The translations under genes were made by a program, and so were the position numbers. From NCBI GenBank assembly GCA_020433455.1, contig JAGRCP010000082.1, forward strand, positions 1 to 63,914: 63,914 nucleotides of DNA. The letters are read 5' to 3'. Every line of letters begins with the position of its first letter. The first letter of the stretch is position 1. The notes beneath the pieces are model-generated. The model saw only the letters and a program-made list of their open reading frames with translations, was not told the DNA's origin and ran no database searches. This DNA comes from Caldilineaceae bacterium. GTDB lineage: Bacteria; Chloroflexota; Anaerolineae; Caldilineales; Caldilineaceae. Shown here piece after piece: positions 14,598 through 21,413 of the stretch.

Positions 14598-16250
14598 ATG
14601 CAGGCACGACGAATGACTCTGCCACGCGTTTTGGTTGTACTTTTTGCCGGTTTGTTATTGAGCGCATGCGGCGGCGGCAATACCGGGTCCACCTGGTTCA
14701 ACCTGCCGTCGGCGCCCGTCGAGGTGCAGGAGAACGGCACAGCTTCGGTCTACGGCTTCAACCTCGGGCAGATTTTGGATCCGGCCATGGTCTCGCAACT
14801 GCAAGGCGCCGGCGCGGAGAAGCTCGACGTCCGTATCGGCTATGAAGGCGTCATGCCCCTGCTCAACGGCGAGAGCCTGCCCTACGTTAATTGGGATCAG
14901 GGTTCCGTCGCTGAAGTGCAGAACATCGTCCAGAGCATGCCTAATCTGCCCAACGCGGGTCTCATCTCCCGCGCGCTGCCCATGTTGCGTACGTTCGGCG
15001 TCGGCGTTTCGCTCAACCTCCCCGGCGACAGCGTGCCGAATTGGGACGGCTCCACGCCCAGCATGACCGCAACCGGCGAAGATCAGGCTGCGGTCGGTCC
15101 CGTCAATCTGGGCGGATTGGCCGTAGACGATCAGGGCGCTGTTTCCCTGGACGGCATCTCCCTTGGCGATTTGGGCGCGGCCGTCAATCTGCCGCCCCAG
15201 GTGATGAGCATGGTTCAGCAGCTGGGCGTCAATGAACTCTCCGTGGATACCAGCCCCAACGGAATTCAACTGAGTATGGACGGTCGCTCGCTGCCCGGAC
15301 TTACCTTTGACCCGGCGTCATTGAACCGCGCGCTGGGCGTGGCGGGCGCGTTCGTGGACGCGCCGACGCAAGCCATGCTCGATCAAGCGGCTCCTCTGCT
15401 TGAATCCAGCGACATCAACATGGCCCTTTCCTTCACCGGCGAGCCCACGGGCGAAACCGATCTGGGCAATGTGCCCGTCACCATCAACGAAGACGGCACC
15501 CTATCCGCCTTCGGGCTGAGCATGGGCGATCAGCCTGTGCTGGATGCCGCGACCCTGGGCATGTTGCAGGATGCCAACATCCAGCAGCTTTCGCTTGATG
15601 TGCAGGAGAATGGGCTGAATCTGGCCGCCAACGGCAAGAAATTGCCGTCTGTTTCCTGGAATGAGGATTCCTTGCCCGTTCTTGCCAGTGTGGTCGGCGG
15701 CGTGGCGGGGATCGCGCCCGCCACGTTGGAAAGCGGCCTGGGCGTTCTCCGCAACAGCGGCTTGAGCACTTCCGTCAATCTGCCGCCCAAGGCGGGCGAA
15801 GCCGCCATGGAGATGCCCGAATCGGTCGATTTCACCTACGCCCCGCCTGAACTGGGCGACTTGTCTGCGCCGGTGGTAAAGCTTGATGCCACCCTCAATC
15901 AGGACGGCAGCCTGGCTGAGGCCGCGGGTCTGGACCAGAACGCTCTGGCCGGGCTGGGATTAGGCGGACCGCTGGTTCCGGCCAACGTGATGGCGATTCT
16001 GGATAGCCTGGGCGCGAGCGAAGTCAACCTGACCAGCGATCCCGACATGCTGCACCTTTTCCTGGACGGCAGTGAAGCCCTGACGGTTCAGTACGATCAG
16101 GCGTCGCTGGAGAATGCGCTGGACCTGGCTGTGCCCCTTCTGGGCGACGCTTCTCCCCTCGCCAACCCGGATCTTCAGGAACTGATTCGCACCGTCTTCC
16201 TGCCCTTGCTGCCCGGCTCGGATTTGGACGTAACGGTGCACCTCAACTAA
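14598..16250 (+). CDS. Lipoprotein with four internal repeats, unknown function
   Basis: A 550-residue lipoprotein I do not recognise. The lipobox LLSAC puts the lipidated cysteine at C24. The rest consists of four degenerate tandem units (about 38-150, 168-282, 292-396 and 426-550). Each runs through a G-x-L/V-S-x-x-G-x-x-L-G strand, a proline-containing helix ending in I/L-Q-x-L-x-V/L, an N-G-I/L-x-L-x-x-x-G-x-x-L-P turn, and a second helix. Regular strand-helix alternation suggests a BPI-like or TULIP-like or solenoid fold, but this is a guess. AAGGAGAAGG precedes the ATG. Followed by a perfect bidirectional terminator shared with the convergent O-antigen-ligase-like gene. Confidence 0.7.
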   Translation: MQARRMTLPRVLVVLFAGLLLSACGGGNTGSTWFNLPSAPVEVQENGTASVYGFNLGQILDPAMVSQLQGAGAEKLDVRIGYEGVMPLLNGESLPYVNWDQGSVAEVQNIVQSMPNLPNAGLISRALPMLRTFGVGVSLNLPGDSVPNWDGSTPSMTATGEDQAAVGPVNLGGLAVDDQGAVSLDGISLGDLGAAVNLPPQVMSMVQQLGVNELSVDTSPNGIQLSMDGRSLPGLTFDPASLNRALGVAGAFVDAPTQAMLDQAAPLLESSDINMALSFTGEPTGETDLGNVPVTINEDGTLSAFGLSMGDQPVLDAATLGMLQDANIQQLSLDVQENGLNLAANGKKLPSVSWNEDSLPVLASVVGGVAGIAPATLESGLGVLRNSGLSTSVNLPPKAGEAAMEMPESVDFTYAPPELGDLSAPVVKLDATLNQDGSLAEAAGLDQNALAGLGLGGPLVPANVMAILDSLGASEVNLTSDPDMLHLFLDGSEALTVQYDQASLENALDLAVPLLGDASPLANPDLQELIRTVFLPLLPGSDLDVTVHLN

Positions 16251-16321: not shown

Positions 16322-18934
16322 TCAAAATGAGTTGGACCGGTGGGGGCGTACCCTTGCGGTCGCCTGTGTTTCGCCGACCAACAAGGCAAAAGCGGCCAAA
16401 TTCCATGCGGCCAGATCGGGCAGCACGGTAAAAGCGTCTACCTGGCCATGGGCAAAACCGGCGATCAGCCCAGCCAGTACGCCCGCATATACAGGCCGTC
16501 TGGTTATTCGTGTAGCCATACGTGTTGCTGCTGTGCAGAACAGGCCCAGCCAGATGAGGCCCGCTATTCCCCAGCCGGTTGCAATTTCCAGCCAGACGTT
16601 ATGAGGATGAAGCAGATTGGGATCCATCTTTGCTCTCAGGGGAATGTGGGCCGGATAGCGCCAGAAAAAGCCGTCAGGACCTTGGCCAAAAAAGGGCGCT
16701 TCCCTCCATAACGCCAGGGCGGCCCGCCAGATCTCCAGACGCTCTACGACCGTGGCGCTGTTTTGCAGCCGCGCACCGCCCAGCATGCCCAGCGTCCCTG
16801 CCAGGATGATGCCGGCTCCGGCCAGAAGAACAAACCGGCTCCCGCGTCGTTTGTCCGCGGGGCGGCGGGCCAGGCTCACGAAGACGATGGCTCCCGCAGG
16901 AACCCCCAGCAGCAGGGCCCCGCGACTGGCCGTCAGCATCAGGGCCAGTGCGACCAACGCGGTTACGCCGGCCGTTACAGTCCGCCGGCGCGATTGCGCG
17001 GCCGCGGTCAGCCCCAGGCCCAGAAAAAGCGTGCGTTCCAGGTAGAGGGCCGTATGGTTGGGAGAAAAATGGGGCCCGACCAGGCGCCGCACGCCGTCGG
17101 CATCCACGCCCGCTCCGAGAGCCCAGCCCAGCAGGCCGTAGAGCGCTGCCAATACGCCCCCGGCAAAGAGCGCATAAGCGGCGGCATGTCGCCGGGCAGG
17201 CGTGGCGAGCAGCAGGCGTCCGGCTGCGTATACCGTCAGCGGCATGATTGTGAGCGTGAGAAGACCGGTGCGGTAGGCCGGCCAGTGCCAGACGTTGACG
17301 GCGGAAAGGAGGGAAATGGCCGGCCAAAGCAGGGCCACTCCATCCGGTCCGTTAACTCGGGTCCACATCTGCTTGCCGCGCCGCATGACTCTGAAGAGCA
17401 GCAGGAGGATCAAAGCGGCGAGAAAAATATAAGCAGGCGGGATGGTCAGCGCGCCGTCAATCAGTCTGACTTCTTTGTGCAGGAAATGAAAAGGCAGCAG
17501 GATGAGGCCGGCGGCCAACCCTGCTGCCGGCTGTAGGAACGTCAACAAGGCAAAGCCTAGCCAGCAGAGAAGAATGAGGGGCGGCCAGGTTGCCGGGTAG
17601 TAGACGATTCCCACGCCCAGCCAGAGGGCGATCTGCACCCCAAGCGGCCAACTCAGGATGGACTGACGCCAATGCCTCCATGGCGTTATCCGCGCAGCGA
17701 CGCTTAGGCGCCAGATCCCCGCGGCCGTGATCGCGGCAATCAAGCCCAGGCTAAGCAGCGCGTGCTGCGCGGCGGGGAAGGAGCTTGCCGTCGGCGAACT
17801 CTCTTTCCCGGTTTCCGTTGCCGCGCGCGTCAGACCCGGCGTCAGCATGAACCCTTGCCACTTATCCGGCTGATTTGAAGGGGTGGAGTCTGTGGCCCAA
17901 GCCATGGCCGTCAGCCACGGCCACCCTTTGACGGCGATTTGTATTGCTTCGCTGGCATACTGGGCCTGATCTTCGGGCGAGACGGTCTTCCATGCCGGAC
18001 TGACCGTGCGATTCCAGCCGTAGCGTACGGCCCAGATTGGCGTTTCCGCTTCTCCTGCCGCCTCTACGGCCCGCCGCACCCATGCAACGCGCGCAAAGTC
18101 GAGGACGTCCTGCCGCTGGGCCGGATGGTCCGGCGCATAGCCGAAACCGAAGGGCTGGACGGCAATGACGTCCAGCCCAGATGCTGCATCCGCTGCCAGC
18201 ATGCGCTGAATAAAGGTGACTTCATCCAGCGCCAGGTGGCCCTGATCCTGGGTAGGGGCCAGCGCAGCGCTGACGATCACGGCATGGCTGTCTGCCGCGC
18301 GGATTTCGGCCGCGGCAGCGCGCAGAAGCTGGGCATAGGCGACGGGATTGACGTGCCGGTTGCCCCAGTGGGGCGCGATGTTGGGCTCATCCCAAATTTG
18401 GTAATAGTGGACCTGGTCAGCATAGCGTTGCGCGAAGGCCCCGGCAAAGCGGGCGAAAGTGCGGGGATCGGCCGGCGGCGCCAAAGGGTTGGCCCGGTCG
18501 TCAGGGGCCCGGGCCCAGGCCGGGGCGCCGTCCAGCACGATGACCGGCTCCAGGCCGGTTTCGATGATTGCCGCGATGAGGGCATCGCTTGCCTGCCAGG
18601 CAAACGCGTTCGGCTCCGGTTCCAGCTCGGCCCAGGGGATGCGTTGACGCACCCACGTAAAGCCGGCATTATGCAGCGAGCGCAGGTGCGCCTGGCGGGC
18701 GTCAGGGGATGCGGACAGGAGATCGACGTTGACGCCCGTCGAGGCAAGGCGGGGCGCATCAACAGCGGCCGGCGTGAGGCCAAATCCGCTTTCCCCCAGC
18801 TGCCGCCAGGCCAACTGTCCGGCGAGCAGCGTGGCCATGAGCAGGCCCAGCAGCAACCCAATCCGCGTCAGGGCCAGGGTCTCCCGGAGGGGATGTCGCC
18901 GGTTATTTTGCAGGGTTGGAGATCGATGAGACAA
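16322..18934 (-). CDS. O-antigen-ligase-like protein fused to a degenerate glycosidase domain
   Basis: An 870-residue fusion. After one N-terminal helix (about 23-42), residues 65-365 form a clan GH-A-like TIM barrel (GH39/GH5 type) predicted outside the membrane. The acid/base motif is WDEPN (E183). The strand that should carry the nucleophile reads WAVRYGW (301-307), with R304 where Glu is expected, so it is probably not a working glycosidase. From about 390 to 860 there are about a dozen membrane helices with the Wzy/WaaL-like TASRGA loop and the HPHN motif at 776-779, typical of O-antigen ligases and polymerases that transfer undecaprenyl-linked glycans. Start is TTG at 18934. It lies 52 nt after the CHAT gene on the same strand. 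Confidence 0.8.
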   Translation of the reverse strand: MSHRSPTLQNNRRHPLRETLALTRIGLLLGLLMATLLAGQLAWRQLGESGFGLTPAAVDAPRLASTGVNVDLLSASPDARQAHLRSLHNAGFTWVRQRIPWAELEPEPNAFAWQASDALIAAIIETGLEPVIVLDGAPAWARAPDDRANPLAPPADPRTFARFAGAFAQRYADQVHYYQIWDEPNIAPHWGNRHVNPVAYAQLLRAAAAEIRAADSHAVIVSAALAPTQDQGHLALDEVTFIQRMLAADAASGLDVIAVQPFGFGYAPDHPAQRQDVLDFARVAWVRRAVEAAGEAETPIWAVRYGWNRTVSPAWKTVSPEDQAQYASEAIQIAVKGWPWLTAMAWATDSTPSNQPDKWQGFMLTPGLTRAATETGKESSPTASSFPAAQHALLSLGLIAAITAAGIWRLSVAARITPWRHWRQSILSWPLGVQIALWLGVGIVYYPATWPPLILLCWLGFALLTFLQPAAGLAAGLILLPFHFLHKEVRLIDGALTIPPAYIFLAALILLLLFRVMRRGKQMWTRVNGPDGVALLWPAISLLSAVNVWHWPAYRTGLLTLTIMPLTVYAAGRLLLATPARRHAAAYALFAGGVLAALYGLLGWALGAGVDADGVRRLVGPHFSPNHTALYLERTLFLGLGLTAAAQSRRRTVTAGVTALVALALMLTASRGALLLGVPAGAIVFVSLARRPADKRRGSRFVLLAGAGIILAGTLGMLGGARLQNSATVVERLEIWRAALALWREAPFFGQGPDGFFWRYPAHIPLRAKMDPNLLHPHNVWLEIATGWGIAGLIWLGLFCTAATRMATRITRRPVYAGVLAGLIAGFAHGQVDAFTVLPDLAAWNLAAFALLVGETQATARVRPHRSNSF

Positions 18935-18986: not shown

Positions 18987-20444
18987 TCAGCCGCCCAGCA
19001 GGCGTATTTTACCGGCTAACTCGGTCAGGTTAGCCTGCATGTTTTTGATGCGCTGATATTTGGCCTGGCGCAGATCGCCTTTTCCTGCGGCGGTTTGGCT
19101 GATGGCCCGCCACTGGATCAGCAGGGCTTGCAACTCGCTTGCGTCTTTCCGCCATCGGTCCAGCAGAAACCGCCTGTCAGATGGCAGGGGATGGGCGAAT
19201 TCTCCAATTGCTTCTTGCTCTTGAGCCAGCCACGCGGCTACTTCATCCACCGCGATTTCAACCGGGTCCTCAGCCGGATCCGGGACGGGATCGCCATCTT
19301 CCTGCGCTTCGGCTATCTTCCGGCCGGGCTCGAAAGCGTTCGGCTTGTCTTGGCTGTAAACCGGCTCATCATCCGTCGGCAACGTAAAGAGCCGTCCGTC
19401 GCCCTGCTGCCACAGTACGGGAATGCCGTAACCGGGACCATCGGGGTTGCGCACGTAGAGCGCTCCCCGCGCCGCGGCCACTGCGTAACCGATCCTTCCG
19501 GGGCAGGGACCGGCTGCCAGCGCCGCGTACAGATAGCGGGAGAAGGCGATGGCGTCTTCATCCAGGATGTCGGACTGCATGGCGATGACGGCGGGGAGCC
19601 CGGCCTGTAAAAGCTGCTGGGCAACAGTAGTGAAGGGAATGGGACCGGCAATCTCTCCGCTGCGGCAGGCGTTGAGCAAAGCCAGGCGGACGCTGGGCGT
19701 CTGCTCCATCATGGCGCGCAGCGAGCCGGACGACGCCACGATCGGCTCGCCGTCTCGCCAGAGCGCCAGCCCGTCATCCCGGCCGTGGGTGATGACGTGC
19801 AGGATATCGCTCTGTTGATCGGCGAGGGCCTGGCGCAAGTCCAGCATATCGAAGCGGCCGCGCAGCGTGCGGACGACCAGCCGGGCGGGCGGCAAAGCCT
19901 GCAATGCATCCTCCACGCGTGCAATTTCGGTTTCGGCATCGATTACGCCGTCGGGATCATCGGGCGCGGCAATGAGCAGCCGGAGAGGGAAGCCTGTCGC
20001 CTGCGCGCGACCCGCTCCCACGTGTCGATAGGCTCGCTCTACGCGCACGAGGGGCGTACGCGTCTGCGTAGCGAAAGCGGTATTGCGATGGGGATCGTAC
20101 AGGTACTCCCACGGCAGCGCGGCCACGGCGGGCGGCGACAGGGCCAGGCAAATCCGCACGCCCCGTTCGTCGTCATTTTCCAGGTCGGACCGGGCCCGGA
20201 GCCATAAATCGCGCACGTCGCCGTAAAAGATTTCGCTAAAGAGCGCGCTGCCCGCCTCAATCAGCAGCGCCTCACCCGGTTCATCCTGGCTTATCGCTGC
20301 GCGTACTTCCTGCCAGGCCGTGACGTTCATGTCCTGGGCGAAGAGCCCTTCTGCCGTATGTTCGCGATAGGCGCAGTGGACGGGATAGGGGGGAGAGTCG
20401 CCGAGAATGGTGATGGTAAAGTTGTTATAGTGACAGATGGGCAT
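18987..20444 (-). CDS. CHAT-domain (caspase-like) protein
   Basis: A 485-residue cytoplasmic protein with a CHAT fold. The catalytic pair is visible: H220 in HVITHG and C260 in LNACRSGE, both after hydrophobic strands, with the upstream LPWEYLYDP motif (about 110-118) common to CHAT proteins. The C-terminal 90 residues are helical and charged, a possible partner- or substrate-binding tail. The frame extends 84 nt further upstream, but that would overlap the divergent membrane gene, so the ATG at 20444 is preferred. Substrate unknown; CHAT proteases act in bacterial defence and regulated proteolysis. No adjacent gasdermin, CRISPR or TPR partner gene is seen. The neighbours are a divergent membrane protein and the glycosidase/ligase fusion. 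Confidence 0.8.
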   Translation of the reverse strand: MPICHYNNFTITILGDSPPYPVHCAYREHTAEGLFAQDMNVTAWQEVRAAISQDEPGEALLIEAGSALFSEIFYGDVRDLWLRARSDLENDDERGVRICLALSPPAVAALPWEYLYDPHRNTAFATQTRTPLVRVERAYRHVGAGRAQATGFPLRLLIAAPDDPDGVIDAETEIARVEDALQALPPARLVVRTLRGRFDMLDLRQALADQQSDILHVITHGRDDGLALWRDGEPIVASSGSLRAMMEQTPSVRLALLNACRSGEIAGPIPFTTVAQQLLQAGLPAVIAMQSDILDEDAIAFSRYLYAALAAGPCPGRIGYAVAAARGALYVRNPDGPGYGIPVLWQQGDGRLFTLPTDDEPVYSQDKPNAFEPGRKIAEAQEDGDPVPDPAEDPVEIAVDEVAAWLAQEQEAIGEFAHPLPSDRRFLLDRWRKDASELQALLIQWRAISQTAAGKGDLRQAKYQRIKNMQANLTELAGKIRLLGG

Positions 20445-20460
20445 AATTTGGCGTCGAATT

Positions 20461-20489
20461 TTGACAGTGGATGGCTTGGCCCGTAGAAT
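20461..20489 (+). promoter_or_regulatory. Near-consensus promoter giving a near-leaderless transcript
   Basis: TTGACA at 20461-20466, a 17-nt spacer, and TAGAAT at 20484-20489. The first ATG of the membrane protein is at 20499, so a start 7-9 nt after the -10 box would leave a leader of only 1-3 nt. No ribosome site is present, as expected for leaderless translation. Confidence 0.6.
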
Positions 20490-20498
20490 GCTGGGGTT

Positions 20499-21413
20499 AT
20501 GATGAGACTTGAATGGTTGAACCTGCAATCAATCCGGCAGCGAATTTTTGGGCGTTCCGGCCGCGCTGAGCGTAGCTATGTTGATTATCGGGATCGCATC
20601 AGCGTCGGTACGTGGCTCTTGCTTTTCGGCATTGGTCTGAGTCTGCTCATTGACTTGCCGACCGTGACGCTCAATTTTCGCGTCTTTCGCTCCCCGCTCA
20701 ACATTGCTTTGGGCGACGCGATCTTTGCCGCGCTGCTCCTGGCCGTATTGGCCGCTGCCGTGACCGAGAGCGTGGTCTCGCTTCACCCGGCCATGATTTA
20801 TCGTCGGCGTCGGAACACGTGGGTCTTCTGGGCGTTGCCCATGGCATTGGCGATTATTACGCCTTTAATCCTGCTCCAGGCGGAGAGCCGCACTCAGCAG
20901 GTTATCGGCCTGGGCGTGGCCGGGGCTTTATTCCTGACGGCTTTCCATTTCCTTTATGCGACTGTGGAGCCTGGGCGATCCGGCTATCGTCGGGGCCGGC
21001 TCATCCTGGACGCCCTGACCTACGGATCGGCTCTTCTGCTCTTTCTCTTTGTCTATCAGACCCGCACGCGCAGCGTACTTTCCGGTTCGCTGACGGCCTT
21101 TACCGCGCTCCTGCTGGCTGTAGAGCTGCTGCGCACGACCACCGATCGGGTGAGCCTCACGCTGGTTTACAGCCTGGTTATCGGCCTGATTTTGGGCCAG
21201 GCGACCTGGGCGCTCAACTATTGGAAATTACTGCCCGATTTAACCGGCGGCCTGCTCCTGCTGCTCATCTTTTACCTGCTCACCGGCGTCGCTCAGCAGG
21301 GCTTGCAGGGGCGCCTTTCGCGTCGCGTCCTCGTCGAGTTCGCTTTTTTTACGCTGGTTGCTCTTTTCCTCATCGCCATTGGGCCCGGCTTCCGCCTCTC
21401 CGTGCAGTTTTAG
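20499..21413 (+). CDS. Polytopic membrane protein, possibly DUF5656 family
   Basis: A 304-residue integral membrane protein with about eight hydrophobic helices and a basic N-terminal tail of about 30 residues. The pattern recalls the DUF5656 family common in Chloroflexota, but I cannot confirm it. No catalytic motif is visible. Two ATGs (20499 and 20502) follow a near-consensus promoter almost directly, suggesting a leaderless mRNA. It is divergent from the CHAT gene with only 54 nt between starts and convergent with the reductase gene ending 5 nt after its stop. The shared promoter region with the CHAT protein is the only hint at a joint role. Confidence 0.65.
   Translation: MMRLEWLNLQSIRQRIFGRSGRAERSYVDYRDRISVGTWLLLFGIGLSLLIDLPTVTLNFRVFRSPLNIALGDAIFAALLLAVLAAAVTESVVSLHPAMIYRRRRNTWVFWALPMALAIITPLILLQAESRTQQVIGLGVAGALFLTAFHFLYATVEPGRSGYRRGRLILDALTYGSALLLFLFVYQTRTRSVLSGSLTAFTALLLAVELLRTTTDRVSLTLVYSLVIGLILGQATWALNYWKLLPDLTGGLLLLLIFYLLTGVAQQGLQGRLSRRVLVEFAFFTLVALFLIAIGPGFRLSVQF

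What the first reader, a model, noticed from the sequence alone, without database searches (positions are those of the whole stretch)
16322..18934. Glycosidase-like domain lacking its nucleophile fused to an O-antigen ligase
A clan GH-A barrel keeps the acid/base Glu (E183) but has Arg (R304) at the nucleophile strand. It is joined in one chain to a Wzy/WaaL-like membrane domain with HPHN. A dead glycosidase could act as a glycan-recognition module for the ligase or polymerase.
Basis: partly seen in the sequence, partly recalled or inferred. Interest (0 to 1): 0.6.

Follow-up and report, generated by a model that had tools for sequence, protein, structure and literature searches.

The report
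Catalytically altered PslG-like barrel fused to ligase
In many bacteria of the phylum Chloroflexota, a sugar-cutting enzyme domain is built into the membrane protein that joins surface sugars; in the window's class it has repeatedly lost one cutting residue while keeping its sugar pocket, which suggests it was turned into a built-in sugar holder.

Summary
The 870-aa ORF carries a PslG-like (β/α)8 barrel, with E183 after strand β4 and R304 at the end of β7, exactly where PslG has its nucleophile Glu276. The barrel is fused to a WaaL/Wzy_C-like membrane domain that keeps all three residues known to matter in WaaL (R671, R732, H778).

The fusion is not a one-off. 87 non-redundant fused homologs were collected from Chloroflexota, and 32 of 37 sampled genomes of the window's family have it. 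All 21 stand-alone barrels sampled keep both catalytic Glu, and so do nine fused ones of other classes. In the window's class the fused barrels lost the nucleophile at least 7 times (to R, A, S, N, T, H, G, Q) and the acid/base at least 9 times (mostly to Q or N), almost never both. The pocket stays near-invariant, and the barrel's dN/dS (0.09-0.24) is mostly below that of the attached ligase.

Best reading: a membrane-tethered pseudo-glycosidase that holds the glycan for the ligase. E183 is never lost after the nucleophile is gone, so unusual residual chemistry is not excluded. In the own family the gene is coupled to a CHAT-protease gene. No report of this fusion was found; there is no biochemistry.

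The parts
16322..18934 (-). GH-ligase fusion gene, 870 aa (TTG start)
18803..18871 (-). N-terminal transmembrane anchor, residues 22-44 (positive N-terminus inside, barrel outside)
17810..18739 (-). PslG/GH39-like (beta/alpha)8 barrel, residues 66-375
18386..18391 (-). D182-E183: retained acid/base Glu (PslG Glu165) preceded by Asp in place of the usual Asn (PslG Asn164)
18023..18025 (-). R304 at the end of strand 7, in place of the nucleophile Glu (PslG Glu276)
17888..17890 (-). D349 at the end of strand 8, acidic mostly in the R304 clade (possible R304 partner)
16349..17776 (-). WaaL/Wzy-like membrane domain, residues 387-862
16553..16963 (-). Pfam Wzy_C match, residues 658-794
16922..16924 (-). 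R671, aligned with WaaL Arg191 (binds Und-PP phosphate)
16739..16741 (-). R732, aligned with WaaL Arg265 (binds Und-PP phosphate); invariant in 42 relatives
16598..16609 (-). HPHN; H778 aligned with WaaL His313 (proposed acceptor activation); invariant in 42 relatives
18987..20528 (-). CHAT-domain (caspase-like) gene directly upstream on the same strand; conserved, often overlapping, partner in the own family

Best explanation
The protein is a membrane-bound WaaL/Wzy-like glycan ligase whose first transmembrane segment displays a former PslG-type endoglycosidase barrel on the outer face of the membrane, the same face as the ligase's HPHN loop. The barrel probably no longer hydrolyses by the retaining two-Glu mechanism. 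Instead it uses the conserved cleft to bind the growing or finished surface glycan (or its acceptor) and present it to the ligase site, where R671 and R732 hold the Und-PP diphosphate and H778 activates the acceptor. Shown: the fusion, the residue losses, pocket conservation and purifying selection. Inferred: glycan binding, its ligand, and the effect on ligation. The acceptor is unlikely to be lipid A, because Chloroflexota lack LPS genes (PMC13319060).
For: R304 sits at the nucleophile position by sequence and model. Losses in fused barrels: nucleophile at least 7, acid/base at least 9 parsimony changes on the fused tree. All 21 sampled stand-alone barrels keep both Glu. In 50 nucleophile-less proteins the pocket residues W101, E105, P138, W140, W181, P184, N185, W190, Y200, G306, W307, Q323 and W340 are 47-50 of 50. 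GH dN/dS is 0.09-0.24, against 0.09-0.34 for the ligase domain in the same pairs and nearly always lower. The WaaL residues are intact. Relatives in other families lie in glycan clusters (NDP-sugar epimerase, second Wzy_C, GtrA, GT4). PslG itself is an inner-membrane part of the Psl synthesis machinery (PMC6813494).
Against: No ligand data. E183 is never lost once the nucleophile is gone (0 losses on 25.4 branch units, against 9 on 24.4 intact), which is more constraint than a plain lectin needs. About 20 fused class members keep both Glu with Asp at 182. In P. aeruginosa the hydrolytic activity of PslG matters for Psl. A purely protein-docking role is not excluded.
Confidence: 0.6

Rival explanations
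1. The barrel is still an enzyme with unusual chemistry. With no Glu nucleophile, E183 acts as acid or base and D182 either polarises a 2-acetamido group (substrate-assisted, as the Asp-Glu pair of GH20) or E183 acts as a base in a glycosynthase-like transfer onto or from a lipid-PP-linked glycan.
For: E183 is strictly kept after nucleophile loss. The Asn that touches the -1 sugar in PslG (Asn164) is Asp in all fused class members that keep both Glu and in 39/50 nucleophile-less proteins. The R304 clade has new pocket residues, among them D349 and W346. Upstream neighbours in other families carry G5 domains.
Against: Sister lineages lost the acid/base instead and keep the nucleophile (18 of 18 with D182), and neither mechanism covers these. 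A long cationic Arg in the -1 site is odd for either. Position 304 takes R, A, S, N, T, H, G or Q.
Confidence: 0.2
2. The barrel is a structural or protein-docking module (folding aid of the ligase, or docking site for co-polymerase, flippase or CHAT partner) with no glycan ligand.
For: Fold and sequence are under purifying selection. Pseudo-glycosidase barrels such as Klotho bind protein ligands in the old pocket (PMC8465397).
Against: The most invariant residues include the aromatic and polar residues flanking the catalytic positions. Relatives with both Glu intact exist in the same fusion.
Confidence: 0.17
3. Artefact: frameshift, misassembly or alignment error makes the barrel look dead or fused.
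For: MAG-type assemblies; TTG start.
Against: R304 appears in over 30 family genomes, including single-contig assemblies such as G236, G291 and G379, and the fusion is present in many other families.
Confidence: 0.01

Closest known systems
PslG of Pseudomonas aeruginosa (CAZy GH39, PDB 9g17/5bx9/4zn2)
   Same: Best solved match by sequence profile and by fold; acid/base Glu, cleft residues; membrane-associated, extracytoplasmic, and part of a polysaccharide synthesis machinery (PMC6813494).
   Different: PslG is a separate protein with both Glu and Asn164, and is active; here the barrel is fused to a ligase, with Arg at the nucleophile and Asp at 182.
WaaL O-antigen ligase (CAZy GT121, PDB 7tpg)
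   Same: Wzy_C domain; Arg191, Arg265 and His313 equivalents all present (R671, R732, H778).
   Different: Extra glycosidase barrel; host phylum lacks LPS genes, so the acceptor must differ.
WadA (GT25-GT121 bimodular O-antigen ligase of Brucella and Mesorhizobium; PMC10920833)
   Same: Precedent for a ligase fused to a second carbohydrate-active domain.
   Different: Partner there is a globular glycosyltransferase domain, not an extracytoplasmic glycosidase barrel.
Klotho KL domains (GH1 pseudo-glycosidases)
   Same: Barrels using the old glycosidase pocket for binding, with contact to the remaining 'catalytic' Glu693 (PMC8465397).
   Different: Animal GH1 co-receptors binding a protein hormone; no ligase.

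Membership tests
GH39 / PslG-type retaining glycosidase | (beta/alpha)8 clan GH-A fold, PslG-like | tested here: met
   (VIA-align Z 30, rmsd 3.0, 306 aligned)
GH39 / PslG-type retaining glycosidase | Acid/base Glu after strand 4 | tested here: met
   E183
GH39 / PslG-type retaining glycosidase | Nucleophile Glu at end of strand 7 | tested here: not met
   R304
GH39 / PslG-type retaining glycosidase | Asn before the acid/base Glu | tested here: not met
   D182
GH39 / PslG-type retaining glycosidase | Hydrolytic activity | not testable with these tools
   needs enzyme assay
WaaL / O-antigen ligase (GT121, GT-C fold) | Wzy_C domain above curated cut-off | tested here: met
   62.5 vs 31.7 bits
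WaaL / O-antigen ligase (GT121, GT-C fold) | Two phosphate-binding Arg and acceptor-activating His | tested here: met
   (profile to 7tpg E 5e-11); residue roles from PMC10920833
WaaL / O-antigen ligase (GT121, GT-C fold) | Twelve transmembrane helices, catalytic loop outside | tested here: inconclusive
   many helices, loop 719-783 outside in a crude topology that miscounts helices inside the barrel; exact count unsure
WaaL / O-antigen ligase (GT121, GT-C fold) | Transfer of a glycan to lipid A-core | not testable with these tools
   Chloroflexota lack LPS genes (PMC13319060), so another acceptor is likely
Pseudo-glycosidase binding module | Lost catalytic residue with conserved pocket and purifying selection | tested here: met
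Pseudo-glycosidase binding module | Binds a ligand without cleaving it | not testable with these tools
   needs binding assay

The most novel reading that the evidence does not exclude
The fused barrel still does chemistry as part of the ligase: after nucleophile loss, the strictly kept E183 (with D182) supports substrate-assisted or glycosynthase-like transfer, making one polypeptide with two coupled glycan-transfer sites. This state evolved repeatedly by knocking out one catalytic Glu at a time.
Probability: 0.15. Interest if true: 0.85.

Novelty: new variant of a known kind. Interest (0 to 1): 0.62.

Why it matters
Why polysaccharide-synthesis clusters carry a glycoside hydrolase is an open question (stated for PslG in PMC9075953). 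Here evolution ran the experiment many times: the hydrolase is welded to the ligase and then loses one catalytic Glu or the other while its pocket is kept. That makes a direct, testable case that a non-catalytic, glycan-holding role is what the ligase needs, and it gives a tractable single-chain system in a phylum whose multilayered, LPS-free envelope is poorly understood.

Tried and rejected
Literature searches for a GH-O-antigen-ligase fusion or for PslG with PslJ found nothing relevant (open-access library only). NCBIfam and Pfam give no confident name for the barrel (Pfam GH42 below cut-off; GH42, GH5 and a few GH39 hits for relatives). A replacement Glu at the nucleophile was searched for in the model and alignment: no column is acidic across nucleophile-less proteins but not in intact ones; the R304 clade alone gained D100, D148, D237 and D/E349, of which D349 is at a strand end in the window protein (its residue 100 is Pro). 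A plasmid search gave no full-length relative. The genome-contig scan found only Chloroflexota, but its patterns were specific to this protein, so absence from other phyla is not shown. In a first tree PslG joined a long branch, so PslG placement was ignored and the counts were repeated on fused proteins only. L008 and a fragment of L006 were left out of the tree and of the conservation table.

Full report
What is there. The ORF at 16322-18934 (-) encodes 870 aa: a positively charged N-terminus, one transmembrane anchor (residues 22-44), an extracytoplasmic barrel (66-375) and a polytopic Wzy_C domain (387-862; Pfam Wzy_C 658-794). The model and a crude topology (which wrongly calls helices inside the barrel) place the barrel and the loop carrying R732 and HPHN on the same, outer side.

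The barrel. Sequence search finds PslG first (E 6e-17), and a profile of 42 fused relatives finds it at E 1.5e-35. PslG's Glu165 is E183 here. Its Glu276, shown as nucleophile by a covalent complex (PMC11912335), is R304. The barrel-only AF2 model (pLDDT 81, pTM 0.85) shows the eight strands, E183 after strand 4 and R304 at the end of strand 7. PslG is the best match to it (Foldseek E 8e-19; VIA-align Z 30, rmsd 3.0, 306 residues). No other Glu stands at the nucleophile strand. Asn164 of PslG, which touches the -1 sugar, is Asp182 here.

The membrane domain. A profile of 42 relatives matches WaaL 7tpg (E 5e-11). WaaL's Arg191, Arg265 and His313 (roles as given in PMC10920833) fall on R671, R732 and H778. 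R732 and H778 are invariant in all 42 relatives; R671 is present here but not in every relative. The ligase half therefore looks competent. His at this place is the O-ligase pattern, whereas most polymerases of the clan have Asp or Glu there. Chloroflexota lack LPS genes (PMC13319060), so lipid A is probably not the acceptor.

How widespread. In 396 genomes of the class, 361 have a match to the protein (not all of these are fusions); of 37 genomes of the window's own family, 32 have a strong match to the fusion (counted from its table). Reading the ORFs in the fetched loci gave 111 simple GH-Wzy fusions plus four variants, with some duplicates between collections; 87 remain after thinning. Fusions also occur in other classes of the phylum, where an intact stand-alone barrel often lies directly upstream (L087, L089, L090, L093, L094, L095, L100, L102). 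In L017 barrel and ligase are two overlapping genes.

Catalytic residues. All 21 stand-alone barrels counted, PslG included, keep both Glu, as do the nine fused ones with Asn from other classes. Fused barrels of the window's class mostly have Asp (sometimes His, rarely Gln or Asn) before the acid/base. They either keep both Glu (20), lose the nucleophile (R 32, A 15, S 5, N 5, H 2, and single T, G, Q), or lose the acid/base (N 10, Q 9, A 1); only two lack both, and these are included in the A and S counts. On a tree built with these columns masked, the fused proteins need at least 7 nucleophile and 9 acid/base changes (quick tree, many weak branches, so the numbers are approximate).

Not decay. 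In 50 nucleophile-less proteins, W101, E105, P138, W140, W181, P184, N185, W190, Y200, G306, W307, Q323 and W340 are 47-50 of 50. Pairwise dN/dS of the barrel is 0.09-0.24, nearly always below that of the ligase half in the same proteins. Selection keeps the cleft while dropping one catalytic carboxylate. That is the signature of a binding pseudoenzyme, and it is why I favour it.

A twist. On the same tree, once the nucleophile is gone the acid/base is never lost (0 changes on 25.4 branch units), although it was lost 9 times on 24.4 units of intact branches (binomial P 0.0016). This rests on a loss-only mapping and on few clades; on the slightly different tree one such loss was seen. Taken at face value, E183 still matters, for ligand binding or for chemistry. 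An Asp-Glu pair without a nucleophile is what GH20-type substrate-assisted enzymes use (general knowledge), hence the rival. It does not explain the lineages that keep the nucleophile but have Gln or Asn at 183. In the R304 clade, G136, W346 and mostly D/E349 changed together with R304, so that pocket was remodelled rather than only damaged.

Surroundings. In the own family a CHAT-domain gene lies directly upstream in 32 loci, often overlapping the start. All 30 copies that cover the region keep the His and Cys of the caspase-like dyad. Elsewhere in the class the upstream gene carries G5 and propeller domains, and downstream come an NDP-sugar epimerase, a second Wzy_C protein, GtrA and GT4 genes, so the system belongs to surface-glycan assembly.

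Verdict. Function is inferred. I found no report of this fusion.

Noticed in passing
window 18987-20528 (-): CHAT-domain (caspase-like) protein with intact His/Cys motifs (ITHG, NACRSG), conserved directly upstream of and often overlapping the fusion gene in 32 family loci; its link to a glycan ligase is unexplained.
   Followed up: partly
window 14598-16250 (+): Predicted lipoprotein-like 550-aa protein with internal repeats and no Pfam family above cut-off, converging on the fusion gene; homologs sit at the same place in many family loci (L009-L012, L018 and others).
   Followed up: partly
L007 (own genome, contig C128): A second Wzy_C protein that carries what looks like the middle domain of distant fused relatives (L015, L016) but no barrel.
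   Followed up: no
L004-L006 (own genome, contig C46): Tandem array of PslG-like barrels with both Glu, some behind SH3-like repeats, in one 11-kb contig.
   Followed up: no
L087, L089, L090, L093, L094, L095, L100, L102: In other classes an intact stand-alone barrel gene lies directly upstream of the fused gene.
   Followed up: partly
L015:2086-3726, L016:4298-6001, L103:339-1931, L055:5783-7426: A G5/DUF348/propeller protein takes the upstream place that CHAT has in the own family.
   Followed up: partly
window 20499-21413 (+): DUF5656 membrane protein (E 7e-64), divergent from the CHAT gene, conserved near the locus in several family genomes.
   Followed up: no
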